From positions 1 to 24,033 of the IMG/VR virus record IMGVR_UViG_3300025810_000083: a stretch of DNA of 24,033 bases. The stretch is one strand, 5' to 3'. This stretch comes from a virus. The notes under the pieces are model-generated. The model saw only the letters and a program-made list of their open reading frames with translations. It ran no database searches and was not told the DNA's origin. Of this stretch, positions 3,912 through 20,349 are shown in pieces. Numbering within the stretch: the first letter of the stretch is position 1; each line of letters begins with the position of its first letter. Made by a program: the position numbers and the translations under genes.

Positions 3912-4328
3912 GTGAGCGAACGAACTAGAGCAGTAGCAAATTTAGACGCAGCGTATTCTATATACGTCCGAAGACGGTATGCCGACACAACAGGCTACGT
4001 ATCATGCTGGACTTGTGGCAAGAAGAAGTTTTGGGAGAAGGACGGTATGCAAGCTGGACACTTTCAAACTAGAACGAAGTACAGCACAAGGTGGCATCTC
4101 GAAGAAATTGACGGTAAGTTAGAAACCTTGAATTGCATGCCACAATGCGCACATTGCAATATGGGTAATGGCGGTAGACAATTTGAGTTTGGCCGTAAAC
4201 TAGACGCAGTTTATGGTGAAGGCACTTGTGATCGTTTGATACAGAAAAGCAATAGTACAATGAAGTTCACAACGGTTGAGTTAAAAGAGTTAACCAGCCA
4301 CTTTAAACAACTAACTAAAGACTTGTGA
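3912..4328 (+). CDS. ninG: NinG-like zinc/HNH recombination protein
   Basis: 138 aa, starting with GTG at 3912. It follows the lambda NinG pattern: LDAAYSIYVRRRYAD, GYVSCWTCGKKKFWEKDGMQ, AGHF (49-52), STRW, then MPQCAHCNMGNGGRQFEFGR. Two CxxC pairs (Cys32/Cys35 and Cys79/Cys82) should bind a structural zinc, and His50 in GHF lies where the HNH-type nuclease core begins. NinG proteins are Holliday-junction or recombination-related nucleases (rap-like region of lambda). The gene overlaps the next by four bases (GTGA). Family assignment is good; nuclease activity is inferred. Confidence 0.8.
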   Translation: MSERTRAVANLDAAYSIYVRRRYADTTGYVSCWTCGKKKFWEKDGMQAGHFQTRTKYSTRWHLEEIDGKLETLNCMPQCAHCNMGNGGRQFEFGRKLDAVYGEGTCDRLIQKSNSTMKFTTVELKELTSHFKQLTKDL

Positions 4329-5533: not shown

Positions 5534-6406
5534 ATGAATCATGGCAGTTTATTCTCAGGGATTGGAGGCTTTGATTTAGCCGCTGAATGGGCGGGATTTA
5601 CAAACCTCTTTAATTGCGAGTGGGAAGAGTTCCCTCGCAAAGTCCTCAAACACCATTTCCCCAATGCAGAACAATTCGAAGACATCAAAGACTTTAACGC
5701 GACAGCTTACTCTGGAAGACTTGATATACTCTCAGGAGGGTTTCCCTGCCAACCGTTCAGCGTTGCAGGAAAACGAAAAGGCTCAGAAGATGAACGCCAC
5801 TTGTGGCCAGAGATGCTTAGAGTTGTCGGAGAGTGTAAGCCCCGTTGGGTCGTGGGCGAGAACGTTCGCGGGCTTGTTAATTGGTCGGACGGATTGGTTT
5901 TCGAAACGTGTTGCGCTGACTTGGAAGCTATCGGGTACTCCGTCCAATCGTTTATTATTCCTGCTTGTGCCACAGGCGCGCCCCACCGAAGGGACAGAGT
6001 TTGGATTGTTGCTCACTCCGACAACTTCGGAACCCGTTCACGACTTGGAGAAATTCAAAGCGAGGATGGAGAAATACCCGAACGGAACAACGATGCCCAA
6101 CCTTGCAACACAAGTTCACGGAATGCTCCCGACACCAGTCAAGAGCGACCATCAAAACCGATGGAAGACAGAGAACTGGGACGGGACAAGCGATTTACCG
6201 AGCGTTATAAACACTGCGCTTGGAACGGGTTCCCAACTGTCCCCCCTATTTGTGGAGGAGATGATGGGCTTCCCAAAGAACTGGACGGTATTACCTTTCC
6301 AAAATGGAGAAGAGAATCAATCAAAGGATACGGAAACGCCATAGTGCCGCAAGTGGCTTACAGGATATTTCAAAGCATACAGGATTACGAAGCCATGTTA
6401 AAATAA
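5534..6406 (+). CDS. dcm: DNA cytosine-5 methyltransferase
   Basis: 290 aa. Transfers a methyl group from S-adenosylmethionine to C5 of cytosine in a specific DNA site. Motif I is FSGIGGFD (7-14, SAM binding), motif IV is GGFPCQPFS (68-76) with catalytic Cys72, motif VI ENVRGL (109-114), motif VIII RRDRVWIVA (152-160), motif IX region GLPKELDG (245-252), motif X GYGNAIVPQVAYRIF (265-279). Residues 161-235, where the target-recognition part should be, are hydrophilic and low in hydrophobic residues, and are read in another frame as well (5664-6344). No cognate endonuclease is nearby, so it is an orphan enzyme, probably protecting phage DNA from host restriction. G+C looks higher than in the neighbours, hinting at transfer. 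Confidence 0.92.
   Translation: MNHGSLFSGIGGFDLAAEWAGFTNLFNCEWEEFPRKVLKHHFPNAEQFEDIKDFNATAYSGRLDILSGGFPCQPFSVAGKRKGSEDERHLWPEMLRVVGECKPRWVVGENVRGLVNWSDGLVFETCCADLEAIGYSVQSFIIPACATGAPHRRDRVWIVAHSDNFGTRSRLGEIQSEDGEIPERNNDAQPCNTSSRNAPDTSQERPSKPMEDRELGRDKRFTERYKHCAWNGFPTVPPICGGDDGLPKELDGITFPKWRRESIKGYGNAIVPQVAYRIFQSIQDYEAMLK
5664..6344 (+). CDS. Overprinted protein inside the methyltransferase gene, 226 aa
   Basis: Open reading frame of 226 codons wholly inside the methyltransferase gene, one base out of phase (+1). Its translation looks like a real protein, not a shadow: LEDLIYSQEGFPANRSALQE, CGQRCLELSESVSPVGSW, WKLSGTPSNRLLFLLVPQ, a repeated LLTPT / MLPTPV motif, and LSPLFVEEMMGFPKNWT near the end. 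I recall the same 'LLPTP...QL-P-F-V-E-E-M-M-G-F-P-x-x-W-T' series in other phages, also overlapping dcm genes. In the same stretch the methyltransferase frame is low in hydrophobic residues. The ATG at 5664 is the likely start, but entry by frameshift from the methyltransferase frame is possible. Function unknown; perhaps a partner or the target-recognition unit of the enzyme. Confidence 0.6.
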   Translation: MQNNSKTSKTLTRQLTLEDLIYSQEGFPANRSALQENEKAQKMNATCGQRCLELSESVSPVGSWARTFAGLLIGRTDWFSKRVALTWKLSGTPSNRLLFLLVPQARPTEGTEFGLLLTPTTSEPVHDLEKFKARMEKYPNGTTMPNLATQVHGMLPTPVKSDHQNRWKTENWDGTSDLPSVINTALGTGSQLSPLFVEEMMGFPKNWTVLPFQNGEENQSKDTETP

Positions 6407-8091: not shown

Positions 8092-8663
8092 AAATCAAAC
8101 TCACAATTCCCGAAAGCTATGCAGACATTACGGTGTCGCAGTACAAAAAGATGCTGGACACATGGGAAGACAATAAAGGATCAGAAGCCGTACAAAAGGT
8201 GTTAGAGGTCTTCTGCGGAGCTGAAGAAGGTTTAGTGAACCGAATACATGTCGAAGAGCTTAATAAGATAACACGCGAGCTTACATGGCTTTTTCGTGAA
8301 CCACAACTAACAGACTTCCATTTGCATCAGTCGTTCGTCATGGATGGGGTTGAGTATGGTTTTATTCCAAACATGCAAGAATTAACCGTTGGAGAGTTTG
8401 CAGACATGGAGACATACATGGAAAAAGGAATGTACGAAAACATGCAAGAAATGCTCTCGTTACTGTACAGGCCAATTGTCAGAAAGAAGATGAAGCTGTA
8501 TGAAATCGAGACATACAACCCTAGTCAAATTAAAGTAGATGCAATGGGTGAGTGCAAGATGGATGTAGCAATTGGTGCGGTGGTTTTTTTTTATCGTATC
8601 GCAGGTCAATTAGCGCAAAGTTTGCAGCACTCTTCACCAGTAGTGGCAGCACAGACAAAGTAG
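8088..8663 (+). CDS. Tail assembly chaperone, short form (lambda G-like)
   Basis: 191 aa in the normal frame. Long-tailed phages make a short chaperone and a frameshifted longer form that together guide tape measure and tail tube assembly. The sequence fits the Bacteroidota-phage version I know: MKIKLTIPESYADITVSQYK, then GVEYGFIPNMQELTVGEFAD, LLYRPIVRKKMKLYEIETYN, and a hydrophobic FFYRIA near the end. The T9 run at 8584-8592 encodes the VVFF-Y part and is the likely slip site (see next). ATGA overlap with terL. The direct position after terL is unusual, since a portal would be expected there. Confidence 0.75.
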   Translation: MKIKLTIPESYADITVSQYKKMLDTWEDNKGSEAVQKVLEVFCGAEEGLVNRIHVEELNKITRELTWLFREPQLTDFHLHQSFVMDGVEYGFIPNMQELTVGEFADMETYMEKGMYENMQEMLSLLYRPIVRKKMKLYEIETYNPSQIKVDAMGECKMDVAIGAVVFFYRIAGQLAQSLQHSSPVVAAQTK

Positions 8664-8830
8664 CGCAGAAGTGGGGATGGTATGCTATCATGTATCAATT
8701 GGCTGATGGCGACATATTAAGAATGGAAAGCATTTCGCGTATATTAATAGAAGAGGCATTTACATTTTTAGCCTACGAAAAGGATCAAAACATGGCTAAC
8801 AAAATTAAAATCAATGCAGACAGTAAGTGA
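8552..8830 (+). CDS. Tail assembly chaperone extension (lambda T-like), read by -1 frameshift
   Basis: Frame -1 relative to the chaperone gene, open from 8552 and overlapping it by 112 bases. Translation after the slip is SISAKFAALFTSS, KVAQKWGWYAIMYQLADGDI, then an amphipathic helix ISRILIEEAFTFLAYEKDQN and a Lys/Asn/Ile-rich tail. The WGWY...LA.GD...FLAYEK pattern is one I know from the second chaperone reading frame in related phages, where it is also fused or overlapping. I expect it to be made mostly as the C-terminal part of the fusion, not from the ATG at 8552, which lies before the slip site. Confidence 0.7.
   Translation: MQDGCSNWCGGFFLSYRRSISAKFAALFTSSGSTDKVAQKWGWYAIMYQLADGDILRMESISRILIEEAFTFLAYEKDQNMANKIKINADSK
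8585..8591 (+). other. -1 ribosomal frameshift site T_TTT_TTT
   Basis: In the frame of the gene at 8088 the codons read GTT-TTT-TTT-TAT, so the heptamer T_TTT_TTT at 8585-8591 is in the right phase for a -1 slip (X_XXY_YYZ). Nine T in a row (8584-8592) make slippage easy. After the slip reading continues TTA-TCG-TAT and stays open to the stop at 8828, giving a 247-residue fusion (168 + 79). The arrangement equals lambda G/GT. A homopolymer sequencing error is the main alternative. Confidence 0.7.
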
Positions 8831-9275
8831 TATAAACGATGTGTTTGAGTCTATTGCAGACAACCACGAACAGCTCAAGTCATTCTACACACACTCAATT
8901 GATGAGGTAGATATAGATAAGTTGACTATCGATAAGTTCCCGCTGCTGTATGCTCAAGTGACAGAGGCAAACATCCTAGGTACTCACACGGAATATACAT
9001 ACGAGGTATTTGTGGCAACCGTCGTCTTTGAGGTGCAGCACGATTTTGTAACGCAGGTTTATACAGACACGTTTGGTATTATGCAGGATGTCATCGCAGC
9101 GTTTCACCTAGCGCAATCGAACGTCAACAATTTTGTGCCGCCCGAATGGTCTTTTGAGATGCCTGTGTCGTGTGAACCATTTGCAGCACGAATGACTAAC
9201 AGCCTAACAGGATGGTCAGCATCATTTACCATTAAGTTACCTAGCTCAACCAATTTGTGTAATGCCCTCTATTAA
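8814..9275 (+). CDS. Putative tail completion / neck protein, 153 aa
   Basis: ATG at 8814, 17 bases inside the chaperone extension. Sequence pattern: DVFESIADNHEQLKSFYTHS, KLTIDKFPLLYAQVTEA, a strand FVATVVFEVQ, TDTFGIMQDVIAAFHLAQ, CEPFAARMTNSLTGWSASF and a closing NLCNALY. I recall the 'PQLKSFY...I..KYPLLY...D.F..MQDV...L.PF..RF...LTGW' series in the tail module of flavobacterial phages. It is probably a tail terminator or tail-completion protein joining tail to head. No catalytic motif. Confidence 0.65.
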   Translation: MQTVSDINDVFESIADNHEQLKSFYTHSIDEVDIDKLTIDKFPLLYAQVTEANILGTHTEYTYEVFVATVVFEVQHDFVTQVYTDTFGIMQDVIAAFHLAQSNVNNFVPPEWSFEMPVSCEPFAARMTNSLTGWSASFTIKLPSSTNLCNALY

Positions 9276-9867
9276 ATACACGATAGAGATAGGTGGTAAA
9301 CTGCATAAGCTAGACCTGTACAGAACGCAAAAATCCTTTGATAAATATGCAAAGGCAGTCATAAAACGAGCGCGTGCAATCCTTGATGCAGAAGGGAAAA
9401 ACGCTTCGGGGAATTTACGCAACTCAATGAATTATGAGTACGCAACAAAAAAGAATCAATTCTCACTGACGTTTACATTTGAAGGGGCTGACTATTGGGA
9501 CATCGTAGAGCAAGGTGTGCAGGGTGCGGTAAACAATAAGAAAGCGCCAGTCAGCCCATTTAAGTTTGGATCAGGCACTGGCCCGAAAGGAAAGCTAATT
9601 CCAGCTATTGATAAGTGGGTTGTAGTGAAACCAATCAAAGACGCACGAGATGCCAAAGGCAGGTTTATTCCGCGTAAAAGTTTGGTACGCGCCATATCCA
9701 CTAATATTTACAAATACGGAATTGAGCCAACCCCATTCATACGTCCACCAATGCGTATATTGTTTGATAAGCACAGAGACAAAATAGCTAGAGCATTTGC
9801 TTCTGATGTGTACCACTTTTTTAAAAAAAGCCTACCGCTTAAGTTTAATATCGAATTAGAACTTTAA
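9262..9867 (+). CDS. HK97 gp10-like neck/tail component, 201 aa
   Basis: Starts with ATG at 9262, 14 bases inside the gene before it. Pattern typical of gp10-type proteins: ASGNLRNSMNYEY, a beta strand FEGADYWDIVEQGVQG, the KAPVSPFKFG and IDKWVVVKP blocks, ARDAKGRFIPRKSLVRAIS, and PTPFIRPPMRILFDKHRDKI. In related phages these bind the head-tail interface or complete the tail tube. The protein is strongly basic. Last base of its stop is the first base of the next ATG. Confidence 0.75.
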   Translation: MPSIKYTIEIGGKLHKLDLYRTQKSFDKYAKAVIKRARAILDAEGKNASGNLRNSMNYEYATKKNQFSLTFTFEGADYWDIVEQGVQGAVNNKKAPVSPFKFGSGTGPKGKLIPAIDKWVVVKPIKDARDAKGRFIPRKSLVRAISTNIYKYGIEPTPFIRPPMRILFDKHRDKIARAFASDVYHFFKKSLPLKFNIELEL

Positions 9868-11135
9868 TGGCAATCTCAATAACACAAGAGCCAACACCAA
9901 CTTTGCTAGGCACAGCCGATCAAATTGTTTACGTTGTAACAGAGGACACGAATACATCGCAACCTAAGTTTAGGTATATATGTCAAGTGATTCGCAACTC
10001 AGTTACAGTCGCGACATTAAAGCAACTGCCTAATGGTTCTGATTCTGGCGTTTTTAACGTCTCACGCATTTTGCAGTCGTATGTCTCGCAAGACCATAAT
10101 AAACACGCAATAGGGTCAATAACTACAGCTCCAAATTCAATGGATGCTTTTACCTTAAAGTTCTTTTATGAGTACGCAGCAACTGCAAATGACGAACCAA
10201 CCCAGTACCCAGCGGCAGCGGTGACAACAACAGACTATGTGGTCAACGGCACGTTCACACCAGTGTTTAATGACTATGACACAACGAACGCGAGTAATTA
10301 CATTCTTGATTCGAATACCTCAAAGTTGCTGTCAGTCTACAATCCACAGAAACTAGTTGCACAGCCAACTGATGAAGGAATTATAGCATTTATCAATGGA
10401 ACGACTAATGCGCCTTGGAATTCCAATCCAGCATACATCCATGTAGCGTACTATGAGAGTGACGGAACAGCTTTGCACAGCGGTTACTTTACAACCAGCC
10501 CTTCGCCATCTTCAGCCAGCTCAGCGTTTGAGTTCTTTTTGTATTTTGGTATCTATCCAGCTAACCTAGAGACGCAAAGCGCAGACGCAAACTTAAAACC
10601 TTCTGCAAACACAGGGTGGTCATACTATACGGTACAAACTGCAAGCAGCACAACGCTAAGCGGCAATGAAACCAGCGCACAATACAAGATTACACGGAAA
10701 GGGGCGTGCAAATACACTCCTATTCGTTTAGCATGGTGGAATGAATTAGGGGGTTGGGACTACTATACTTTTTATTCACGCAACGTACACAAACAGCGAA
10801 TACAAAGATCGGACTATCGCGAGGTTACAGGTAATTCGTATAACGCAAACGGAACAGGTATAGACTATGCGGCCAAACCATACGAAGGGGGTTTGAAGGT
10901 AAGCAATGTAAAAACTACGAACACATGGCAGTTAAACACCGACGCAGAGGATGAGGAGTTTAATAGAGTTATTGATAGTTTAATGAGCAGTCCGACAGTG
11001 CTATGGTATTATGATAGTGCTTGGCGAGGATGTGTAGTGACAGACACAGGCATTGATTTTCAGACTAGCGTTAACGACAAGGGTATTGTCTACACAGTGA
11101 ACATTGAAGAGTCACGTTATAAGCCTACGATATGA
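9867..11135 (+). CDS. Tail structural protein, 422 aa (distal tail-like candidate)
   Basis: TAATG overlap with the previous gene. Beta-rich and Thr/Ser/Asn-rich, no signal peptide. Landmarks: FRYICQVIRNSVTVATLKQL, SGVFNVSRILQSYVSQD, a CKYTPIRLAWWNELGGWDYY block, the FYSRNVHKQRIQ strand, and near the end VIDSLMSSPTVLWYYDSAWR and GIVYTVNIEESRYKP. The 'GVFDISRIL..YVS', 'R-x-x-W-x-N-x-x-G-G-x-D-Y-x-T-F' and 'SP-x-V-x-x' order is one I recall from the tail module of many Bacteroidota phages. It lies between the neck proteins and the large tail protein, so a baseplate/distal-tail role is likely. Confidence 0.6.
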   Translation: MAISITQEPTPTLLGTADQIVYVVTEDTNTSQPKFRYICQVIRNSVTVATLKQLPNGSDSGVFNVSRILQSYVSQDHNKHAIGSITTAPNSMDAFTLKFFYEYAATANDEPTQYPAAAVTTTDYVVNGTFTPVFNDYDTTNASNYILDSNTSKLLSVYNPQKLVAQPTDEGIIAFINGTTNAPWNSNPAYIHVAYYESDGTALHSGYFTTSPSPSSASSAFEFFLYFGIYPANLETQSADANLKPSANTGWSYYTVQTASSTTLSGNETSAQYKITRKGACKYTPIRLAWWNELGGWDYYTFYSRNVHKQRIQRSDYREVTGNSYNANGTGIDYAAKPYEGGLKVSNVKTTNTWQLNTDAEDEEFNRVIDSLMSSPTVLWYYDSAWRGCVVTDTGIDFQTSVNDKGIVYTVNIEESRYKPTI

Positions 11136-13969
11136 CAGAAGTATTAGCTAAATCTCAAGACGGAGCAGATACGGTCAGCCTTGATTTAAAAGACCCGCGA
11201 GTTGAGTTAAACTTTGAGATACAGAACAACACTAAACTATCAGAACGGAGCAGTCCGCATAGTTTGAGTTTTAAGTTGCCACGTACTAAAAAAAACAACA
11301 AGTTCTTTAATCATTACCACGAAGTTAATATTGCAGAAGGCACATGGTCTGCATATAGCGAGACAACAGTAGAGGTTTTTGATGAAGGCATTGTAGTTTT
11401 AGTCGGTATCCTACAACTGAACAACGTAAACAAAGACCAGTACAACGTCAATGTATTAGGCACAACTGCTGACTTTTTTCGTGCTATACGCGGTAAGTCA
11501 TTTGATGATTTATTCGCCTACCTCGGTGTTGATTTAGACCATGCACTTACAGTCGGTAACGTCAAAGATTCGTGGGATGTCAATAATGACATAACTAACG
11601 GATCGGTGGGTAATGGCACAATCGTTTACCCTTTTGTTGATTACGGCAATTATCCGTTTGGCTGGTATCTATCTGGGTCAAGCGGTTATTTTACTGGGCT
11701 AAATTCTAACGGGAACATTAAAGTAGCTCACTTAAAGCCTGCAATTAGGGTGCAATTCTTAATGAATGCAATCTTAAAGTTTGCAGGGTACACTGCTGAA
11801 TATTGTGCTGAATTAACAAGCACAAGATTTACTGAGTTGTACATGTTCTTGGCAACTGAGCAAAACGTAGTTTCAACAAGACCACTGTATGGAGCAAAGG
11901 TTGGGTTTACGTCGAATGTCACGTTACCAGCAGCAACACCACAAGCTCTTGTTACGCTATTACCGAGCAACGAATCAGCACCGTTTTTTGACCCTGACAA
12001 TTTATTTACTACAGGTGTCTTTATAGCTCCGTTCGAAGGGACGTTTGTATTCTCTGTGCAGCTTGTTTTGTCTACAGCACAGACCAATGATTACTATTTT
12101 TCTTTCAATGTAAGTAGCAATACGCAGTCATTTAGCGACCAAGTTCTAATACCAGCAGCTAGTAACGCAGGATACGTTTACACAGGAACGTTTCAAATGA
12201 CATGCACTGCTTCGCAGCAAGTTAACTTCCAAGCGGGGGCAGAAGCGACTAGCGATATAATTATCAATACGTCAATCAGTGGCGACAACTCATTTATTAG
12301 CGTTCCCTTATACGACACAGAAAATCCAACGGGTGCTGTAGTTGATATGGCAACTAACATGCCTGAGCTTACTCTAGATGAGTGGTTTAAAGCGATGGTA
12401 GACAAGTTTAATATTATTATAGAGCCTGACATCGACTCACCTAAAGTTTTAAAAGTTGAAACGGCTGTGGAATATTTTAACGGGGGAGTAAAAAAGGATT
12501 GGACAAAAAAACTAGATGTCAGTCAAGCCAAGGTGATTGAGCCAACAACCAGTTTACAAAAGAAACGGATCATCTACTCAGACGCAGAAGGTAAAGACCA
12601 CAAAAACGAGTGGTGGCAACGTAACTGGAATTGGGTAAAGGGTAAATTTATTTATGAAAACGCGAACGACTTTGCAGTTGAGGATGAAGAAATTGGAGAT
12701 GTGTTTGTCCCACTAAGGACACAGGCAATTCGTAAAACCTCACAGACAGAAGAATCACTTGTGCCTAATGTCTTAGTAAGCCGACAATGGATTAACAGCG
12801 AAAATGGTGCAAAAAAAATCACCAATAAACCAATCCTAGCTTACTACCATAGACTGCAAGACATTGGCAATGGGTATAATTTTGATATAGAGGGCGACAC
12901 AATTACGCAGTACCCCTATTTTTCAGCATACAGCGCGACACCAATAGCGGCAGATACAGTAAGTTTAAATTGGGGTTATGACTACCCTGATGATGACACG
13001 CACCCATTAGTTAATGGCGTGCCGTTCTTTTTTATGTTTCGTAAATACTGGGCTAGTTACATTGATAACATATACAATGCGGACGCACGTTTAATGAACT
13101 GCTCTGTATTCCTAAGCCCTCAAGACGTAAGGGATTTACGGTTTAATGATAAAATCTGGATTGATGACAGCTACTGGCGTGTATTAAGTGTAAGCAATTA
13201 CGTTGTTAGTGGTAACACACCGTGTAAAGTTAAGCTGCTCAAAGTCATTGATCAGGGAGACTGGGATTGCACGCAACGACCAGACACATACAATTCCGAC
13301 GGAACAGTTGATTTTGTGTCAGTCACAGACGGAACAGCGGTCATAGTAAACAGAGAGTGTTGCGAACGCTTTGGGTACAAATACGACAGCGTAGATAGAG
13401 ATTGCTTTTACAAATCGGTCAGCCCAACTATAGGGGGAAATCCAACTGTACCATCGTTTGAGACGGCTTATACCTTGAATGGAGGAGCAACGCCTACACC
13501 CAGTCCAATCGTTGACAGCTTTAATAAGAGTTTTTCTGCTTCAGATTACACCGTAAATGTGATGGAGTTTGGTATGGAAAAAACCACCACTGGCAACAAA
13601 GCAGTTAGCATGAATTTATTAAGTGGAGGCACCGATATAGAGATAGCACCCAATATGATTTATGCAGCCGAAATTGACATTGTTGCAATGCAAACAGGCG
13701 GTACATCGGGAACGGTTGGTGATGTAGACACTATGAAACTAACAGGTACAGTGAAAACATTTCGAGGAGGAGGAGGTGAGGTAGGTAGTTTTCATACAAT
13801 TAGTCACCAATCCGATCACACTAACGTTCACGGTGTTTCTTGGCAAATTGTTGTAGGCGCAAATAGACCTGCTGTTTTGAATTTAAGAATTACGGGTCAG
13901 GCTAATCATATCATTCGCTTTTTTGCACATGTACGCTTAACGGCAATGAGTGTCATTAAATTTATCTAA
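11132..13969 (+). CDS. Large tail hub / baseplate protein with fibre-like C-terminal part, 945 aa
   Basis: ATGA overlap. Residues 1-120: LDLKDPRVELNFEIQNNTKL, SLSFKLPRTKKNNKFFNHYH, VFDEGIVVLVGILQLNNV, the start I know from tail hub proteins of this phage group. Middle part is beta-rich with a DEWFKAMVDKFNIIIEPD block and many Trp/Tyr strands. Around residues 747-766 lies a Cys cluster CCERFGYKYDSVDRDC, seen in tail proteins. The last 150 residues (GTVGDVDTMKLTG, FRGGGGEVGSFHTIS, GVSWQIVVGANR, and IRFFAHVRLTAMSV) look like a C-terminal host-contact domain shared with tail fibres. So it probably joins the hub to a receptor-contact tip. Assignment by pattern and position only. Confidence 0.6.
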   Translation: MTEVLAKSQDGADTVSLDLKDPRVELNFEIQNNTKLSERSSPHSLSFKLPRTKKNNKFFNHYHEVNIAEGTWSAYSETTVEVFDEGIVVLVGILQLNNVNKDQYNVNVLGTTADFFRAIRGKSFDDLFAYLGVDLDHALTVGNVKDSWDVNNDITNGSVGNGTIVYPFVDYGNYPFGWYLSGSSGYFTGLNSNGNIKVAHLKPAIRVQFLMNAILKFAGYTAEYCAELTSTRFTELYMFLATEQNVVSTRPLYGAKVGFTSNVTLPAATPQALVTLLPSNESAPFFDPDNLFTTGVFIAPFEGTFVFSVQLVLSTAQTNDYYFSFNVSSNTQSFSDQVLIPAASNAGYVYTGTFQMTCTASQQVNFQAGAEATSDIIINTSISGDNSFISVPLYDTENPTGAVVDMATNMPELTLDEWFKAMVDKFNIIIEPDIDSPKVLKVETAVEYFNGGVKKDWTKKLDVSQAKVIEPTTSLQKKRIIYSDAEGKDHKNEWWQRNWNWVKGKFIYENANDFAVEDEEIGDVFVPLRTQAIRKTSQTEESLVPNVLVSRQWINSENGAKKITNKPILAYYHRLQDIGNGYNFDIEGDTITQYPYFSAYSATPIAADTVSLNWGYDYPDDDTHPLVNGVPFFFMFRKYWASYIDNIYNADARLMNCSVFLSPQDVRDLRFNDKIWIDDSYWRVLSVSNYVVSGNTPCKVKLLKVIDQGDWDCTQRPDTYNSDGTVDFVSVTDGTAVIVNRECCERFGYKYDSVDRDCFYKSVSPTIGGNPTVPSFETAYTLNGGATPTPSPIVDSFNKSFSASDYTVNVMEFGMEKTTTGNKAVSMNLLSGGTDIEIAPNMIYAAEIDIVAMQTGGTSGTVGDVDTMKLTGTVKTFRGGGGEVGSFHTISHQSDHTNVHGVSWQIVVGANRPAVLNLRITGQANHIIRFFAHVRLTAMSVIKFI

Positions 13970-13970
13970 C

Positions 13971-14135
13971 GTGAAAGATTTTATAAATAACGTAGGTCGA
14001 GGAGTTGTACCCACTATCGATTTAATGAATCAGCGTATATATAAGGGTAGCCCACTGTACAAACAATGGTATGGTCGCTATTCATTAGACGGCAAGCTGT
14101 GGCGCAAAATTAAACTGACACTAGAAAATGGCTAA
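13971..14135 (+). CDS. Small protein between tail hub and tape measure, 54 aa
   Basis: I use the GTG at 13971, one base after the stop of the tail hub gene; an in-frame GTG at 13950 would add seven residues and a 20-base overlap. The protein is basic with VKDFINNVGRGVVPTIDLMN and a Tyr/Lys/Trp-rich C-terminus (YKQWYGRYSLDGKLWRKIKL). No match recognised. It overlaps the tape measure gene by 8 bases, so it is coupled to it. Possibly a small tail component. Confidence 0.5.
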   Translation: MKDFINNVGRGVVPTIDLMNQRIYKGSPLYKQWYGRYSLDGKLWRKIKLTLENG

Positions 14136-15744
14136 ACCGATAAACGTAGAAGCGAAAGTTGTCGCAGAAGTTGAGGACGCAAAACAGAACATCAAAGAAG
14201 TAGGTGATGAGGTAGATGCGTTAAAAGAAAAAGCACGGGGCGCAGCAAAAGCCAGCTCTAAGGAATTCGGAAACTTTGCCAACCTGTTTAGTGGATTGTT
14301 GCCTCGCAACATTCAGATGATGATTCGTAAGTTTCAGTCTACTCAACGGGCGGTGGGACGCTTAGGCCGTAGCTTAAAATTTCTCAAGGGTGCATTTGCT
14401 GGACTCGGTATCGGTTTGTTAATTCTAGCCTTAGAAGCACTAATTGAGAACTGGGAAAAAATTAGCAACCTGCTGACTGGCGTTGACGAAAAACAAGAAG
14501 CCTACAACAAACGAATTGAGGCAGGTACAAAAGCAGTAAATTCTTATGTCACAGCCAATCAGCAATATATTGACACGGTTAATGACAGTACAGCTAGTGC
14601 CGATTTACGCAATCAGGCTTTGGCAACAATGGGAGCGCGGCTGCGGGAAGTGCAGAATCTAGACATTACCACAGCAGAAGGTCTTGAACGTTTCAATTTA
14701 GCAATTGAACGGCAGTTAAGACTGGAGGATTTACAGGCCCAGCAACGTGACGTACTACAATCAATTGATGCGCAAAGAAACGAAGACGCACAAGACGCTA
14801 TTAAATGGTACGATTTTTTAGCAAATAGTAAGTTTCGTTCGCAAAAGGTAGACGAGGCACAAACAGGTATTGATGAAAAAATAAATACTTTAAAATCAGA
14901 ATTTAACGCTCTTATTTTAGAGCAACTCGCAATCGAAACGGAGCGCACTTTAGAAATTGAGCGACAAAATGAAGCCGCTCGAATTCAGAGAGAGCTAGAG
15001 GCTAGACGGCTTAAGTACGGAGAAGAATTTGTACGTCAATTAGAACGAGAACAAGAGGCAGAATTATGGGAGGATGACGGCTCTGACCTTATGGCTCAAT
15101 TTGAATACGATCAAGCTCTAGAGCAACAAAAACGAGACAGCTACGAACAGCAGCTAGAAGACTTTGAAGCGTTTTTGGAGGAGCGGACACAAATGATGCT
15201 AGACGCTAGTGACGCTGAAGTCGCAGCTAATGAAAAAGCAACTAGAGACACAATAACAGGTATTCAGCTACAAGGTGCTGCAAGACAAGCACAATTTAGG
15301 GCTGCGGAAGATATTAGTAGCGGATTAGAAAGGTTGGCCGCTGAAGGTTCTAATGCTCAAAAAGCATTTGCCATTACAAGTATCTTGTTGTCTCAAGCGC
15401 AAGCTGTACAAAGTGCAATTACTGCAGCGTTAAAAGCAGCGGAACAAACGGGCGCAGCAGCACCGTTTACAGCACCGTTGTTTATTGCGCAAATGATTGG
15501 TGTAGCTCTTAGTTCGTTTGCGCAAGTTAAAAGCATACTTGATCAGGCAGGAGCAGGGGGAGGTTCGGTTGGTCGTGGAGGAGGCGGTGGTCGAGGCGGT
15601 ATGACAAAGGCATTAGTACCTCAAGGTGTAGGTGACCGTCAGTTGTCATTGCCTCAATCAAATCAGGCATTTATTGTACAGAGTGAATTGCAGGGTCAAA
15701 TGCAGTCACAGGGTGCGCTCGAAAAAAGGTTACACCTACAGTGA
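14128..15744 (+). CDS. Tape measure protein, 538 aa
   Basis: Sets tail length. Residues 1-60: charged coiled-coil start (VEAKVVAEVEDAKQNIKEVG). A hydrophobic segment at about residues 88-108 (GAFAGLGIGLLILALEALIE) matches the membrane-like helix common in tape measures. Then a long Gln/Glu/Ala/Arg-rich helical region with EIERQNEAARIQRELEARRL and, at about 400-470, Ala-rich helices (AFAITSILLSQAQAVQSAIT). A Gly-rich hinge GGGSVGRGGGGGRGG lies near 483-497. At about 1.5 angstroms per residue this length would give a tail of roughly 80 nm, so the virion is long-tailed; no tail sheath gene is seen, which favours a siphovirus. Confidence 0.85.
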   Translation: MAKPINVEAKVVAEVEDAKQNIKEVGDEVDALKEKARGAAKASSKEFGNFANLFSGLLPRNIQMMIRKFQSTQRAVGRLGRSLKFLKGAFAGLGIGLLILALEALIENWEKISNLLTGVDEKQEAYNKRIEAGTKAVNSYVTANQQYIDTVNDSTASADLRNQALATMGARLREVQNLDITTAEGLERFNLAIERQLRLEDLQAQQRDVLQSIDAQRNEDAQDAIKWYDFLANSKFRSQKVDEAQTGIDEKINTLKSEFNALILEQLAIETERTLEIERQNEAARIQRELEARRLKYGEEFVRQLEREQEAELWEDDGSDLMAQFEYDQALEQQKRDSYEQQLEDFEAFLEERTQMMLDASDAEVAANEKATRDTITGIQLQGAARQAQFRAAEDISSGLERLAAEGSNAQKAFAITSILLSQAQAVQSAITAALKAAEQTGAAAPFTAPLFIAQMIGVALSSFAQVKSILDQAGAGGGSVGRGGGGGRGGMTKALVPQGVGDRQLSLPQSNQAFIVQSELQGQMQSQGALEKRLHLQ

Positions 15745-15790
15745 TAGGTATATTTATAAGTAGAGGGTTTTGTGAATGCAGCTTATTTGC

Positions 15791-15822
15791 TTGTATATAT
15801 GTATAAATTTATGTATATTTTG
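15791..15822 (+). promoter_or_regulatory. Candidate Bacteroidota-type promoter for the small-gene array
   Basis: TTG at 15791-15793 followed after 20 bases by TATATTTTG at 15814-15822, one base off the TAnnTTTG consensus. The stretch 15745-15838 is A+T-rich and holds no gene. Transcription would start near 15829, and the leader TAAACATAAAGAA precedes the ATG at 15839, which resembles the linker TAAACAACAGAGAT used between the array genes. Confidence 0.55.
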
Positions 15823-15838
15823 CTATAAACATAAAGAA

Positions 15839-16030
15839 ATGGATATTTTAGTACACGAACACTGGCGCGACGTAGAGCATGTATTGAAGCTGCACGATCT
15901 TGACGTGTATGTTTTGCACTACAGAAGCAAAGGCATGATGGCATGTGTTGTAGAGGCTGATAGTATTATGGCAGCTCAAGACATTCTAGAGGTTATGCAC
16001 GCAAACGGATTTGACGCAACACAAGTTTAA
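15839..16030 (+). CDS. Array gene 1: small acidic protein, 63 aa
   Basis: First of seven small genes. I place the start at the ATG at 15839, after the candidate promoter, not at 15776. By eye it has alpha (DVEHVLKLHD), beta (LDVYVLHYRSKG), beta (MMACVVEAD), alpha (SIMAAQDILEVMHANG) and beta (FDATQV) elements, with net charge near -7. No family recognised. Its stop begins the first identical linker. A single Cys, no metal motif, no signal peptide. Function unknown; the setting suggests a host-takeover or counter-defence role. Confidence 0.65.
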   Translation: MDILVHEHWRDVEHVLKLHDLDVYVLHYRSKGMMACVVEADSIMAAQDILEVMHANGFDATQV

Positions 16031-16041
16031 ACAACAGAGAT

Positions 16042-16284
16042 ATGAGAAGCACACCATTAGCAGAATTGGAATACTACGACGAGGGCGCAACGATTCTAAC
16101 CGATTGGGAGGCTGAGGAATTTGTCATGGACGAATTCAGTTACGAGATGAGCAACGACATTCAAATCGTTTTTATCAGCGGAATCAGCAGCGCAATCTAC
16201 GTAGGAGAAAAAGCGTACGACGCAAACCAGCCTATGTGGGACGCGTACGAATACGCAAAGCAATATGACGACAGCAAAGTATAA
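16042..16284 (+). CDS. Array gene 2: small acidic protein, 80 aa
   Basis: Starts directly after the linker TAAACAACAGAGAT. Very acidic, net charge about -14 by count, with DWEAEEFVMDEFSYEMSND and a hydrophobic strand IQIVFISGISSAIYVG, then an aromatic helix PMWDAYEYAKQYDDS. I recognise no family. It is the least like the other members in layout (long acidic N-terminus before the strand). The charge and aromatic pattern are like a DNA-mimic protein, which is a guess. Confidence 0.65.
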   Translation: MRSTPLAELEYYDEGATILTDWEAEEFVMDEFSYEMSNDIQIVFISGISSAIYVGEKAYDANQPMWDAYEYAKQYDDSKV

Positions 16285-16295
16285 ACAACAGAGAT

Positions 16296-16565
16296 ATGGC
16301 ATTCAATTACAATCAATATATGGCAGACGTTGACGAGTTTATTAGCTTGGTTGAGTCTGAAGGTTACAGATTAGGTTATCATGACGAAAGAGATTCTATG
16401 ATTAACTTCTCACCTGATGACCCTTTGGATATGCGAGGATCATTTGAACACGAGGATATCATTGAAGAAATTGCTGACGAAGTTTTCCCTGTTAAGTGGA
16501 TTACAGAAATTAAGACAATAGGACGAGGAGAAATTATTGTTAAGTACACTGACCTTTATATCTAA
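16296..16565 (+). CDS. Array gene 3: small acidic protein, 89 aa
   Basis: Starts after an identical linker. By eye: helix DVDEFISLVESEG, strand YRLGYHDERD, strand SMINFSPDD, acidic turn, helix HEDIIEEIADEVF, strand PVKWITEIKTIGRG and strand EIIVKYTDLY. Net charge about -14. No known family recognised. The alpha-beta-beta-(loop)-alpha-beta-beta order matches genes 4, 5 and 7. Confidence 0.65.
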   Translation: MAFNYNQYMADVDEFISLVESEGYRLGYHDERDSMINFSPDDPLDMRGSFEHEDIIEEIADEVFPVKWITEIKTIGRGEIIVKYTDLYI

Positions 16566-16576
16566 ACAACAGAGAT

Positions 16577-16825
16577 ATGTACGAAGAAGTATTTGGTTTT
16601 TTACAGGAAGTTTTTCCAAGAGTCATTGAAGATGGTGACGGAACTTTTCGCGTTTCAGGCGAAGACCCTAGTGCAAAATACAATGGGCGCAGAGCCTTGG
16701 ATTATTATGCTACAAGTAGTGATTACGACTTAGGCGTTTATTTGCCGTTCTTAGACGAACTAGAAGACATGGGTTACTTTGTCGAATGGTGGGATGCAGG
16801 AACTGCGATTGTCGCACCACTTTAA
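16577..16825 (+). CDS. Array gene 4: small acidic protein, 82 aa
   Basis: Starts after an identical linker. Helix MYEEVFGFLQEVFP, strand RVIEDGDG, strand TFRVSGED, a Tyr/Ser-rich loop, helix LPFLDELEDMG, strand YFVEWWDAG and strand TAIVAPL. Net charge about -12. The motif 'helix-D-M-G-Y-x-V-E' is shared with gene 6 (FVDMGYEVENIGY). No known family recognised. Confidence 0.65.
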   Translation: MYEEVFGFLQEVFPRVIEDGDGTFRVSGEDPSAKYNGRRALDYYATSSDYDLGVYLPFLDELEDMGYFVEWWDAGTAIVAPL

Positions 16826-16836
16826 ACAACAGAGAT

Positions 16837-17064
16837 ATGAGAGAAATATTTATTAAAGCAATAGAAGCGTTTGGTGTACCGTATACAATTACGTATGACC
16901 AAGGAAATATGATTCTTGCTCAAGTTGATTTTAGCGATATTTTTTTTGGTCAAAATGATGTAGATGATTTGCAAGATTGGATGGCGCATGAAGTCGGCAT
17001 ACCAATTTATGATCTTATTCTAGAGGAAAATCGAGATGGCGTACAAGTAGGAATAGACTACTAA
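16837..17064 (+). CDS. Array gene 5: small acidic protein, 75 aa
   Basis: Start set at the ATG right after the linker (16837), not at an upstream in-frame ATG at 16786 that lies inside gene 4. Helix MREIFIKAIEAFG, strand VPYTITYDQGN, strand MILAQVDFSD, loop, helix DVDDLQDWMAHEVG, strand IPIYDLILEENRD and strand GVQVGIDY. Net charge about -12. No known family recognised, same layout as genes 3, 4 and 7. Confidence 0.65.
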   Translation: MREIFIKAIEAFGVPYTITYDQGNMILAQVDFSDIFFGQNDVDDLQDWMAHEVGIPIYDLILEENRDGVQVGIDY

Positions 17065-17075
17065 ACAACAGAGAT

Positions 17076-17357
17076 ATGATTGCTTACCGTATCTATGACA
17101 TAAAGAAAGACGAAGTGTATGATGCTATTTATGAAGGCTATCTAACAACGCCTTTGTTTGATGTGTCTAGAGGTGAAGCAAACAATTTGATGGATGGGTT
17201 AGAAATCACGCATAAGAGAAAAGGAAACTATACAGATGTCGCATTGTACGGTTCGGGATATGCTACAGTGCAAAGTAAGTTAGTAGAAGAAGAATTTTTA
17301 TTGACTATTGAGGCATTTGTAGACATGGGATACGAGGTAGAAAATATTGGATACTAA
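17076..17357 (+). CDS. Array gene 6: small acidic protein, 93 aa
   Basis: Starts after an identical linker. Opens with a strand-like MIAYRIYDIKKDEVYDAIYE, then LFDVSRGEANNLMDGLEI, a charged turn HKRKGNY, a strand DVALYGSGYATV, and helix KLVEEEFLLTIEAFVDMGYE. It is the least acidic large member (about -9) and has more Lys. The closing helix plus 'DMGYEVE' repeats the pattern of gene 4. Function unknown. Confidence 0.65.
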   Translation: MIAYRIYDIKKDEVYDAIYEGYLTTPLFDVSRGEANNLMDGLEITHKRKGNYTDVALYGSGYATVQSKLVEEEFLLTIEAFVDMGYEVENIGY

Positions 17358-17368
17358 ACAACAGAGAT

Positions 17369-17617
17369 ATGGCAGCTTGGGAAAGACATTACGGAGATTT
17401 TGAAAGCCTAATTGAAGCGCACATTTTTCGACCATCACAACTAGACTCTGGCACAGAGTTAATTGAGTTTTACGATGGCGATTCAAAAAATCCTCCACAC
17501 GCTGTTATCGAGTGTGGCGATAAACAATCAGCTATACATTGGGCAAACGTCTTAGGGGATTGGGGGGCATGGACAGAAGTACAAGGGACAGAAGTGTACG
17601 TAGAACCTTACGCATAA
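17369..17617 (+). CDS. Array gene 7: small acidic protein, 82 aa
   Basis: Last member preceded by the identical linker. Helix DFESLIEAHIF, strand ELIEFYDGDSKNP, strand HAVIECGD, helix KQSAIHWANVLGDWG, strand AWTEVQG, strand TEVYVEPY. Net charge about -11. Same order as genes 3-5. The linker series ends here: its stop is followed by AAAAAAAGAC and the ATG of the prohead protease at 17627. Confidence 0.65.
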   Translation: MAAWERHYGDFESLIEAHIFRPSQLDSGTELIEFYDGDSKNPPHAVIECGDKQSAIHWANVLGDWGAWTEVQGTEVYVEPYA

Positions 17618-17626
17618 AAAAAAGAC

Positions 17627-18574
17627 ATGGAGCGCAAACTAATTGAACTACTTATTGGTGACGAGTCTGAGGTTGCGGTTGAGGCTATCAGTTTAGTAAA
17701 GCACCCAGCCATTGAGGAGAATTTTATCTTCTTTTCCAAGGAGGGTAAGAAAGACAAGTTTGTTTCTTTAGCCAGCGTAGAGGATGAGGAAAAGCGAATG
17801 CTCATTGGCCCTGCTTTAATTCCTGACAAGCACATCCCACGATACGATGAGCTTAAAGACGAAGAGTACGACGTTTACTTTTCTAAGGATACAGTCAAGC
17901 AGGCCGCTGAAATGTACCTCAAGCAGAACCGCACCAACGATCACACCTTTGAGCATCAGGACGCAATCGACAATGTGTCTGTAGTCGAGTCATGGGTTGT
18001 GACCAATCCAGAGATGGATAAATCAAAGCATTATGGACTAAATGTACCTGAAGGCACTTGGATGGTTCGAGTCCACGTTGCCAACGACGAGATGTGGAAG
18101 TTCGTCAAGGAGCAAGAGGTACAAGGCTTCTCGATTGAAGGTTATTTTGTAGACAAAATTGAAAACATGAGCAAACGAGCAAATCCAATTATGGACACCC
18201 TGAACGAGATTAAGAATCTTTTGACAGGCAAGCGCAAGCTATATGCAGAGGCAAAGCTAGAAGACGGTCAGATGTTAGTTACTGACGCGGAAGAACTAGC
18301 TGCTGGCGTTGAGGTCAAGACCATTGACGAAGAAGGCCAGCCAGTAGAAATCCAAAACGGCAAGTACACCACAGAAGCAGGTGTAGAGCTTGAGGTATTT
18401 TCAGGCGTTCTGACGGAGTATAACGGAGAAGTAAAGGCTACGGAAGAGAAGGTAGAAGAAGAGGCAAAGAAGGAGGAGCTAAGCCGCAAGCAGCTCATTA
18501 AAAAGCACAAGCGCGAGCTACACAAGATAGTCGTTAAGAAATACGGATCACTTTACAATTTAAAGAAGCTATGA
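17627..18574 (+). CDS. Prohead maturation protease, XkdF-like, 315 aa
   Basis: Cuts scaffold and capsid proteins during head maturation. Opens as XkdF-type proteins do: MERKLIELLIGDESEVAV, ISLVKHPAIEENFIFF. The protease core includes RMLIGPALIPDKHIPRYDEL, NRTNDHTFEHQD (His106/His110), a VVESWVVTNPEMDKSKHYGL block and GFSIEGYF, where Ser169 is the likely nucleophile. The last 100 residues (EEKVEEEAKKEELSRKQLIK, KHKRELHKIVVKKYGSLY) are charged and helical, as expected for a fused scaffold segment. Usually a portal gene precedes this; here the small-gene array does. It overlaps ArdA by four bases. Confidence 0.85.
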   Translation: MERKLIELLIGDESEVAVEAISLVKHPAIEENFIFFSKEGKKDKFVSLASVEDEEKRMLIGPALIPDKHIPRYDELKDEEYDVYFSKDTVKQAAEMYLKQNRTNDHTFEHQDAIDNVSVVESWVVTNPEMDKSKHYGLNVPEGTWMVRVHVANDEMWKFVKEQEVQGFSIEGYFVDKIENMSKRANPIMDTLNEIKNLLTGKRKLYAEAKLEDGQMLVTDAEELAAGVEVKTIDEEGQPVEIQNGKYTTEAGVELEVFSGVLTEYNGEVKATEEKVEEEAKKEELSRKQLIKKHKRELHKIVVKKYGSLYNLKKL

Positions 18575-19293
18575 AGCTAGAGAAAATATACATTTTTATG
18601 GAGCCGTATGACTACAATTACCGTGGTCAGGGCTTTTACATTTACCCTTGGTCGTACAATTCTTGGGACGCATTCCAGAAAGGAATGGAAGAAAAGAAAG
18701 CCGATTACCCACCAGAGGTAGAAGAGTGGGAGTTTGTAGATTCTGACGGTCTGAATGCTTACGGAGTTGACATGGATGGTATCTCGGAGAAGGACTGGGA
18801 CGGCATCCAAGAGTTAGCCAAGTTTGCTGATCAAATCGGTTTGGATATTTACGACATCGAGAAAGTACGTAGTGATTTGGGCGATGTTGATGTCGACTAT
18901 CTAGAAGAAAGCTACCAAGGAGAGTTTGACAGCCTCTTGGACTATTCTTATGAATTGCTGGACGATATAGGTGTCAGTGACGAGATGGCCGAGCGATATT
19001 TCAGTTTTGACAAGTTCGGTTACGCACTGCGAGTAGGTGGCGATGTAGACGCTATGTTTATGAACGACTGGGAAGACAATTACGATAGCGAAATGGAAGC
19101 TATGGATGCGCTTGAAGAATTTGAGCGACGCAGCGATGCAGAAATCGGAGAATACTACGTCTACGACTTACTAGGTAGTTTAAGTGAGTTGGGTGCAGAA
19201 ACAATGAAAGATTACTTTGACTACAAAGCATTTGCTCGTGACCTCAGTTACGACTACGACGAATACTTTGGTCGCATTTGGTGGAATCACTGA
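18571..19293 (+). CDS. ardA: ArdA-type antirestriction protein (DNA mimic)
   Basis: 240 aa, extremely acidic. ArdA proteins copy the shape and charge of B-form DNA and block type I restriction enzymes. ArdA signature pieces are present: VDYLEESYQGEFDSLLDYSY (residues about 109-128), where 'Y-x-G-E-F/Y-D-S' is the known motif, and YFDYKAFARDLSYDYDEYFG (215-234), matching the 'Y-D-x-E-A-F-A-R-D-L' end motif. A weaker first copy of that motif lies at 143-161 (YFSFDKFGYALRVGGDVDA), so the protein seems to carry a partly duplicated end module and is longer than the usual 165-170 aa. It sits in the head gene operon, overlapping the protease (4 bases) and the next gene (1 base). Confidence 0.8.
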   Translation: MKLEKIYIFMEPYDYNYRGQGFYIYPWSYNSWDAFQKGMEEKKADYPPEVEEWEFVDSDGLNAYGVDMDGISEKDWDGIQELAKFADQIGLDIYDIEKVRSDLGDVDVDYLEESYQGEFDSLLDYSYELLDDIGVSDEMAERYFSFDKFGYALRVGGDVDAMFMNDWEDNYDSEMEAMDALEEFERRSDAEIGEYYVYDLLGSLSELGAETMKDYFDYKAFARDLSYDYDEYFGRIWWNH

Positions 19294-19547
19294 TGTGGGA
19301 TAGAATCTACGATATATGGATTGGTGACGAGGACGCAGAGCTTCGCAATATGATTGACGAGTTTCGAATGGATTATGTTCTTAATCGAAAGTTCATGGTT
19401 GCTTTAGACCTCATCGAGTCGGCTGTAGCCAACTGGGATTACACAGAGGCTGAAACTTTATTTCAGGAGTATGCTCCAGCAGAAATGGACTACTATGACA
19501 AAAGACTTTTTACAACACTTTTAAGAGACGCTAATTATGGCATTTAA
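19293..19547 (+). CDS. Small acidic protein after ArdA, 84 aa
   Basis: I choose the ATG at 19293 (TGATG overlap with ardA); an in-frame GTG at 19278 would add five residues. Helical, net charge about -11 by count, with aromatic residues: MWDRIYDIWIGDEDAELRN, FRMDYVLNRKFMVALDLIES, ANWDYTEAETLFQEYAPAEM. No family recognised. Overlapping coupling to ArdA and acidity make it a possible second DNA mimic or an ArdA partner. It overlaps the next gene by 11 bases. Confidence 0.55.
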   Translation: MWDRIYDIWIGDEDAELRNMIDEFRMDYVLNRKFMVALDLIESAVANWDYTEAETLFQEYAPAEMDYYDKRLFTTLLRDANYGI

Positions 19548-20349
19548 ATTTTTTGACGAATTAACAGTGGCACAGGGCTTTCAAGATTTGCCTGAGCCTA
19601 TGATTCTGCACAACCCAGATACAGCAGCAATTACTTTAACCTTACAGCCTTCGCAAGCAGATTTGTTTAGCAAACTAAAATCAAACGTCGATGTCTTTGG
19701 TGCAATTAATGAATTGCCTACGATGAAAAAAGCAGCGGCGATTGCTTCGTATGCAACGACAACAAGCGGCCGTGGATCAGGTGGTAAAATTAAAGTCACA
19801 GTAACTGATGTACAGGGTGATTTGGTTGATGCTTTCCCCACAGCTACAGGGGTTGTGTTCGGAGTAAATCCTCCAATAGGTGATGGTTTTCAAACGTATC
19901 GACCAACGACAGATGGAGACGGTGAAGGGCTTGAGATTACTATGAAAGTTACAGGAACTGCTGTATCACAAACTGTCGAAGTCACAAATCTTATCAAAGG
20001 AACAGGTTACAAATCGGGTGATGTGTTAACTTTTGAAGACGTTAATGGTGGGGCTGATTTTACTTATACGATACTCGCAGCCGACACGGAAGCATTGTTT
20101 CAACCGTCAGCGGCTATCGTAGATTCTACTGCTTTAGGAGCCAACTACCGTGTTGGTGATTGGTTATATATCACACTAACGGAAACAGTAGAATTAGTAG
20201 AGTACAGTTATCCTTTGCAGTTTCAAATTCCTGCGGCTGCGATTAGTGAGACAGATATAACTTACGTGTTAGGTGTAGGTGAATCAACGCCATTCAGCAA
20301 TATTAGATTTAAAGTAGGAGCAACAACAGATATTTTAGCATTATCATAA
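19537..20349 (+). CDS. Beta-rich virion protein, 270 aa (decoration or head fibre candidate)
   Basis: Starts with MAFKFFDELTVAQGFQDLPE. N-terminal 60 residues contain ITLTLQPSQADLFSKLKSNV; the middle has strands with Thr/Val/Gly. Two matching segments, GTGYKSGDVLTFED (residues about 158-171) and GANYRVGDWLYITL, share the 'G-x-x-Y-x-x-G-D-x-L-x-I/F' pattern that is common in phage fibre and head-decoration domains. It lies between ArdA and the scaffold/capsid genes, so a virion role is likely. I do not recognise the family. Confidence 0.55.
   Translation: MAFKFFDELTVAQGFQDLPEPMILHNPDTAAITLTLQPSQADLFSKLKSNVDVFGAINELPTMKKAAAIASYATTTSGRGSGGKIKVTVTDVQGDLVDAFPTATGVVFGVNPPIGDGFQTYRPTTDGDGEGLEITMKVTGTAVSQTVEVTNLIKGTGYKSGDVLTFEDVNGGADFTYTILAADTEALFQPSAAIVDSTALGANYRVGDWLYITLTETVELVEYSYPLQFQIPAAAISETDITYVLGVGESTPFSNIRFKVGATTDILALS

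What the first reader, a model, noticed from the sequence alone, without database searches (positions are those of the whole stretch)
15839..17617. Seven small acidic genes joined by six identical stop-linker-start junctions
Seven proteins of 63-93 aa are separated by exactly TAAACAACAGAGATATG six times, with zero mismatches, while the coding parts differ strongly. Conservation begins at the stop and ends at the start codon. This is not explained by ordinary operon overlap, which in the rest of this phage is ATGA or TAATG. The likeliest explanations are a standardised translation signal that gives equal expression, or short homology that lets genes be added, lost and shuffled as cassettes. All proteins are acidic (net about -7 to -14 by count), and the array interrupts the structural operon beside an ArdA gene. 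It could be a modular set of host-takeover or counter-defence proteins.
Basis: partly seen in the sequence, partly recalled or inferred. Interest (0 to 1): 0.88.

Follow-up and report, generated by a model that had tools for sequence, protein, structure and literature searches.

The report
Phage swap-in gene cassettes with standard joints
A group of uncultured aquatic phages carries, inside its head-and-tail gene block, a row of tiny acidic-protein genes joined by one standard 17-base joint, and whole genes are swapped one at a time between distantly related phages exactly at that joint, which looks like an interchangeable toolkit, possibly against bacterial defences.

Summary
In detail: six exact copies of TAAACAACAGAGATATG join seven acidic ORFs at 15839-17617. 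It is not peculiar to this phage: the 17-mer separates small acidic genes in 31 non-redundant arrays of related IMG/VR phages (209 junctions, 122 exact, 86 gene families). The phage backbone is collinear; the array is not. A phage 96% identical to the window on both sides has a completely different array; identity stops at the last base of the first linker and resumes four bases before the head-protease start. Of homology ends inside arrays, 155 of 179 lie within 5 nt of a linker edge (4% expected). Single linker-to-linker cassettes are 94-98% identical between phages whose backbone proteins are 28-60% identical. Relatives with another linker (TAAAACAACTTAAAGATG) never share a near-identical cassette with linker-A phages (0/376 pairs against 33/314). 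Best explanation: an integrase-free cassette array whose linker is both translation start region and the homology at which genes are exchanged. Cassettes and ArdA repeatedly fuse to the head protease, so products may be packaged and injected like T4 internal proteins. Exchange is shown by comparison; recombination mechanism, counter-defence role and injection are inferred. No exact precedent was found.

The parts
15839..16030 (+). cassette gene 1 (63 aa); first gene of the array in several relatives
   Evidence: homologues in L110, L111, L091; weak DpnD/PcfM-like match below cut-off
16028..16044 (+). linker 1; homology to L109 ends at its last base
16042..16284 (+). cassette gene 2 (80 aa); homologues in L041 and L091/L020
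16282..16298 (+). linker 2; homology to L068 ends here
16296..16565 (+). cassette gene 3 (89 aa); homologues in L143 and in the linker-B array of L118
16563..16579 (+). linker 3
16577..16825 (+). cassette gene 4 (82 aa); 96% identical DNA in L058, homologue fused to the head protease in L146
16823..16839 (+). linker 4
16837..17064 (+). cassette gene 5 (75 aa); homologues in L047 and L182
17062..17078 (+). linker 5
17076..17357 (+). cassette gene 6 (93 aa); found only in the near-identical L107/L031
17355..17371 (+). linker 6
17369..17617 (+). cassette gene 7 (82 aa); homologue in the linker-B array of L129
17615..17629 (+). non-canonical junction TAAAAAAAAGACATG into the head protease; homology to L109 and L068 resumes at 17623
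17627..18574 (+). XkdF-like head maturation protease (Peptidase_S78_2), right border of the array; in relatives its C-terminus is fused to cassettes or ArdA
18571..19293 (+). ArdA antirestriction protein, net charge -44; absent at this place in the otherwise 96-98% identical L109, so also exchangeable
14128..15744 (+). tape-measure-like protein, left border of the array interval in relatives
   Evidence: name inferred from length and position
3912..4328 (+). NinG (lambda Rap family) gene, candidate recombination function; in 12 of 14 related records

Best explanation
The stretch is an exchangeable gene-cassette array in the structural gene block of a small tailed phage. Each cassette is one small acidic gene. 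The 17-nt linker is at once the stop codon of one gene, an unstructured SD-less translation start region and the start codon of the next. Because it is identical at every junction it also gives short homology, so recombination between co-infecting phages can add, remove or replace single genes or runs of genes without harming reading frames or translation signals. Phages with the same linker draw on a common pool of cassettes even when their backbones are far diverged; phages with another linker draw on another pool. SHOWN by comparison: exchange of whole cassettes with borders at linkers, transfer between distant backbones, and sharing only within one linker type. INFERRED: that exchange is by homologous recombination at the linker (perhaps helped by the NinG/Rap-like protein), that the linker drives translation, and that the products are a variable set of counter-defence or other host-interaction proteins, possibly packaged in the head and injected with the DNA.
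For: Exact 17-mer in 66 stretches of IMG/VR, about 40 with several copies at gene spacing, against single chance-like copies in 33 of 34 hits in 257 Gb of GTDB genomes. 31 arrays, 179 cassettes, 86 families, 45 of them in one array only; shared pairs 31 in the same and 19 in opposite order. Window vs L109: 96.4% identity up to 16044 = end of linker 1, none to 17622, 96% after; window vs L068: identity up to 16299, one base past linker 2. Ends of homology within 5 nt of a linker edge: 86/100 and 69/79, 4% expected. Single cassettes linker to linker: L065/L033 99.2%, L049/L068 100%, L039/L018 100%. Cassettes 94-98% nt identical with backbone 28-60% aa. Sharing at >=85% nt in pairs with backbone <60%: same linker 33/314, different linker 0/376 (Fisher 2e-12, pairs not independent). 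Variant linkers cluster within arrays. Linker unstructured, no SD core. Head protease C-terminus fused to three cassette families, a DUF7249-like family or ArdA in six cases, no cassette-cassette fusion seen. Same arrays recur in independent assemblies.
Against: Ends of homology at linkers are also expected if gene-level mosaicism arose by other means, since every gene is flanked by a linker. The linker-type effect is confounded with phage lineage, host and habitat. 17 bp is short for RecA-type recombination, and no RecT or ERF annealing protein was found in 14 records. No cassette has a known anti-defence relative, and fold searches found nothing significant. Packaging rests only on gene fusions and position; T4 internal proteins carry an N-terminal packaging signal, and no shared leader peptide is apparent here.
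Confidence: 0.78

Rival explanations
1. The linker is purely a standard translation signal for equal expression of small late genes; selection on initiation keeps it identical, and gene swapping happens by ordinary illegitimate recombination that selection trims to gene borders.
For: It ends at the start codon, is unstructured and has no SD core. Each lineage could have tuned its own signal. Core genes are exchanged or rearranged in the interval without exact linkers.
Against: The upstream stop codon and all 11 spacer bases are conserved too. No other gene of the window uses it. Relatives use other linkers equally uniformly, and two blocks of one phage use two different linkers, which a general ribosome signal does not predict. 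Cassette sharing follows linker type.
Confidence: 0.2
2. The array grew by tandem duplication of one gene with its linker; the coding parts then diverged beyond recognition while the linkers stayed the same.
For: Two folded families share the same order of secondary structure elements, and many families are of similar length and charge.
Against: Of 1081 profile pairs among 47 families only one exceeds 90% probability. Only one family has two members in one array. Single cassettes are shared at 94-100% identity between different arrays, so recent change is exchange, not duplication.
Confidence: 0.05
3. A site-specific recombinase moves the cassettes, as in integrons, with the linker as recombination site.
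For: One gene per cassette, constant joint, one orientation, open pool.
Against: No tyrosine or serine recombinase in 14 related records (the records may be incomplete). The linker has no inverted repeat and does not fold. It is fully explained by stop, spacer and start.
Confidence: 0.04
4. The arrays are metagenome assembly chimaeras joined at the shared 17-mer.
For: All sequences are uncultured; short repeats can mislead assembly.
Against: The same array recurs in independent data sets: window and L107 99.94% identical over 4.8 kb, and L020, L068 and L091 from three sources. The 17-mer is shorter than usual assembly k-mers.
Confidence: 0.01

Closest known systems
Start-associated sequences (SAS/ESAS) of Cluster K mycobacteriophages (PMC3203893)
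   Same: A short, near-identical, mostly one-orientation repeat directly upstream of start codons of many unrelated phage genes, conserved across diverged phages; a role in translation was proposed.
   Different: SAS is a 13-mer with a Shine-Dalgarno core, 3-7 bp before starts, in the non-structural half. Here the repeat runs exactly from stop to start, has no SD core, sits in the structural block and marks the borders of exchanged cassettes; the passages read report no cassette exchange at SAS.
T4 internal protein (ip) genes (PMC12373910, PMC9391042)
   Same: Variable non-essential small genes near head genes whose products counter restriction; accessory genes change by recombination at short homologies.
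   Different: T4 Ips carry an N-terminal capsid-targeting sequence; no shared leader is apparent here. No standard joint is described between ip genes in the passages read. Injection is untested here.
Mobile regulatory cassettes (early promoter stem-loops) of T4-type phages (from own knowledge; the paper itself was not in the library)
   Same: A repeated regulatory element between small accessory genes that is thought to help modules shuffle.
   Different: There the element is a promoter with a stem-loop; here the linker is unstructured, too short for a promoter, and joins stop to start inside an operon.
Integron gene cassettes (own knowledge)
   Same: Works alike: arrays of single promoterless genes, a common joint, an open pool, and gain and loss of single genes.
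   Different: No integrase and no structured attC site found; exchange seems limited to phages with the same linker.
Relaxed homologous recombination and module borders of temperate phages (PMC3945230, abstract only; lambdoid boundary sequences from own knowledge)
   Same: Mosaic exchange of modules with help of phage recombinases at limited homology.
   Different: There borders are few and modules large; here every gene of an array has the same exact joint.

Membership tests
Start-associated sequences (SAS) | 13-bp GGGATAGGAGCCC with SD core, 3-7 bp upstream of starts | tested here: not met
   Linker is TAAACAACAGAGATATG without GGAG, AGGA or GAGG; definition from PMC3203893
Start-associated sequences (SAS) | Restricted to the non-structural half of the genome | tested here: not met
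   Array lies between tape measure and head protease
Integron cassette array | Integron integrase (tyrosine recombinase) | tested here: not met
   PF00589: 0 of 14 related records, control genomes positive; records may be incomplete
Integron cassette array | attC site with folded inverted repeats | tested here: not met
   Linker alone has no fold, energy 0.0; region less paired than random array sequence
T4-type internal proteins | N-terminal capsid-targeting sequence shared by the products | tested here: inconclusive
   Conserved DNA ends at the ATG; 84 cassette-type proteins aligned show no shared leader, but the motif itself was not searched for
T4-type internal proteins | Present in the virion and injected | not testable with these tools
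   Only indirect: six head-protease fusions
Known anti-defence families (genes 1-7) | Profile match above cut-off to a known family | tested here: not met
   Pfam, PHROGs, PADLOC; 82 of 84 array-type proteins without Pfam match
ArdA (gene at 18571-19293) | Match to PF07275 above gathering cut-off | tested here: met
   47.1 bits, cut-off 27
Cassette exchange at a standard joint (functional kind) | Same joint, different gene sets on near-identical backbones, borders at the joint | tested here: met

The most novel reading that the evidence does not exclude
An open cassette system of phages without integrase: lineage-specific 16-18 nt stop-to-start linkers act as compatibility tags that define exchange groups, so that single genes of a head-packaged, injected counter-defence repertoire are swapped between distantly related phages in frame and ready for translation.
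Probability: 0.33. Interest if true: 0.93.

Novelty: new variant of a known kind. Interest (0 to 1): 0.82.

Why it matters
Phage mosaicism is usually explained by rare illegitimate events plus selection. Here there is a repeated, countable joint at which single genes are exchanged and whose sequence appears to decide which phages can exchange, so the role of short homology in gene shuffling becomes directly testable. The arrays also mark more than 80 small acidic gene families, nearly all without any annotated relative and next to ArdA, as prime candidates for new counter-defence proteins, and the head-protease fusions suggest how they might be delivered.

Tried and rejected
Cellular origin: the GTDB scan gave 33 single chance-like hits and one 5-copy contig, itself a piece of this phage group in a MAG bin. 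Isolated relatives: capsid tblastn finds only Nonlabens phages P12024S/L at 21% identity; 19 cassette-type proteins (the window's seven and 12 others) have no match in 50,697 phage records. One protein superfamily: hhalign of 47 families, nearly all unrelated. Function by fold: AF2 of one family is confident (pLDDT 92.5), alpha-beta-beta-alpha-beta-beta, but without significant PDB or viral match; window gene 4 folds with low confidence (64) in the same order of elements. Recombinases: RecT, ERF, tyrosine and serine recombinases not found; NinG found in 12 of 14. Linker variants travelling with a cassette family: rather array-specific. Assembly chimaera: rejected by recurrence in independent data sets. 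Literature searches for a described equivalent found none in the open library.

Full report
OBSERVATION. The six 17-mers are present exactly as stated and the seven ORFs between them are intact. The window is an IMG/VR virus record of 24,033 bases. The pattern occurs nowhere else in it, even with three mismatches. All seven proteins are acidic, whereas most other small ORFs of this phage are not. The junctions into gene 1 and into the protease are not copies of the linker in this phage.

THE SAME JOINT IN OTHER PHAGES. The exact 17-mer is found in 66 stretches of other viral contigs, often 3-7 times at gene spacing. In 257 Gb of bacterial and archaeal genomes it gives 33 single copies, as chance would, and one 5-copy contig that is 93-97% identical to this phage outside the array. 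After removing duplicates there are 31 arrays with 209 linkers, 122 of them exact. Information content is 1.4-2.0 bits at each of the 17 positions and at most 0.42 on both sides. The arrays hold 179 cassettes of 44-112 aa in 86 families; 45 families occur in one array only, so the pool is open. Mean net charge is -11.5 and none is above -3.

POSITION. The head-protease search brought 71 loci. In the loci tabulated, the order terminase - tail genes - tape measure - [interval] - scaffold-like gene - major capsid is kept (some names inferred from position). Cassettes, protease, ArdA and one larger gene (the 19537-20349 homologue) change places only within this interval. More distant relatives (31-49% protease identity; L155, L162, L165) have no cassettes between tape measure and protease.

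EXCHANGE AT LINKERS. L109 (same contig as L049) is 96.4% identical to the window from 8632 to 16044, the last base of linker 1; no gene matches until 17623, then 96% identity resumes. L109 has 11 linker positions there instead of 6, with other genes, and lacks ArdA at the equivalent place. L068 shares genes 1 and 2 and diverges at the end of linker 2. L018 and L065 differ by insertion of one cassette. Over all array pairs, 155 of 179 ends of high-identity segments inside arrays lie within 5 nt of a linker edge, against 4% expected. Single cassettes are 94-98% identical in DNA between phages whose backbone proteins are 28-60% identical. They have therefore moved between distant phages recently, singly or in short runs. 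The window's array is also found 99.94% identical in an independent data set (L107), so arrays are stable on a short scale and are not assembly artefacts.

LINKER TYPES. Relatives with about 60-66% identical protease carry other uniform linkers: TAAAACAACTTAAAGATG mostly just before the protease, and TAATAAAAAGAATATG in the block between protease and capsid. L133 carries a uniform variant of linker A. Near-identical cassettes are shared only within one linker type: for pairs with backbone below 60%, 33 of 314 same-type pairs against 0 of 376 different-type pairs (Fisher p 2e-12, pairs not independent). Linker type is confounded with lineage and perhaps host, so gating is suggested, not proven. 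Variant linkers cluster within arrays (17 identical pairs against 2.9 expected), as homogenisation would give.

HOW IT PROBABLY WORKS. The linker is unstructured and has no Shine-Dalgarno core, which fits initiation in Bacteroidota (established knowledge; the host group is inferred from the nearest isolates, flavobacterial Nonlabens phages). At the same time it offers identical 17-bp homology at every joint. T4 changes its accessory genes by recombination between microhomologies of typically 6-10 bp (PMC9391042), so 17 bp may be enough if a phage recombination function exists. NinG, the family of the lambda recombination nuclease Rap (established knowledge), is present in the window and in 12 of 14 records checked, the window included. 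RecT, ERF and site-specific recombinases were not found. Homology-directed exchange is therefore the best inference, not a demonstrated mechanism. The main caveat is that any gene-level exchange in an array would end at linkers, because every gene is flanked by one; only the linker-type effect and the exact identity of the linkers argue for the homology itself.

WHAT THE GENES DO. Nearly all families lack annotated relatives. Hints: uniform strong acidity, as in DNA-mimicking antirestriction proteins; ArdA is part of the same exchangeable interval; the open, fast-changing pool is what an arms race would give. In addition, the C-terminus of the head protease is fused in six separate cases to an array-type product: three cassette families, a DUF7249-like family, and ArdA in two lineages (L109, L118, L146, L137, L124, L127/L128/L147), while no cassette-cassette fusion was seen (denominators there are approximate). 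A fusion to the protease would carry the product into the prohead. Late expression of antirestriction proteins makes sense if they are packaged and injected, as T4 internal proteins are (PMC12373910). This is an inference with moderate support.

NOVELTY. The nearest described sequence feature is the start-associated sequence of Cluster K mycobacteriophages (PMC3203893), which differs in sequence, position and, in the passages read, the lack of reported exchange. Module borders and relaxed phage recombination (PMC3945230) are known in principle. A standard stop-to-start joint repeated at every gene of an array, with single-gene exchange and linker-specific exchange groups, was not found in the literature at hand, which lacks most subscription journals.

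Noticed in passing
L109:10001-11200, L118:9992-11221, L124:9992-11623, L137:279-1475, L146:10001-11230, L147:10430-11638: Head maturation protease fused at its C-terminus to array cassettes, a DUF7249-like protein or ArdA; six separate cases.
   Followed up: yes
L129, L134, L171, L200: One phage can carry two blocks of small genes, each with its own uniform linker (TAAAACAACTTAAAGATG and TAATAAAAAGAATATG).
   Followed up: partly
window 19537-20349: Homologues of this 270-aa protein sit inside cassette arrays in L011, L036, L038, L042 and L047, preceded by the linker or a variant, so larger genes can move as cassettes too.
   Followed up: partly
window 5534-6406 and 5664-6344: C5 cytosine methylase gene with a 226-aa open frame overlapping it in another frame on the same strand.
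   Followed up: no
L013, L017, L034, L035, L053, L063, L064, L071: The 17-mer stands once before a conserved 284-aa gene of another phage group, perhaps chance kept by descent.
   Followed up: no
L091 (JAFMIA010000163.1): A 4,977-bp contig of this phage group sits in a GTDB Pseudomonadales MAG named DEBay; probably mis-binned, so no evidence of host.
   Followed up: partly
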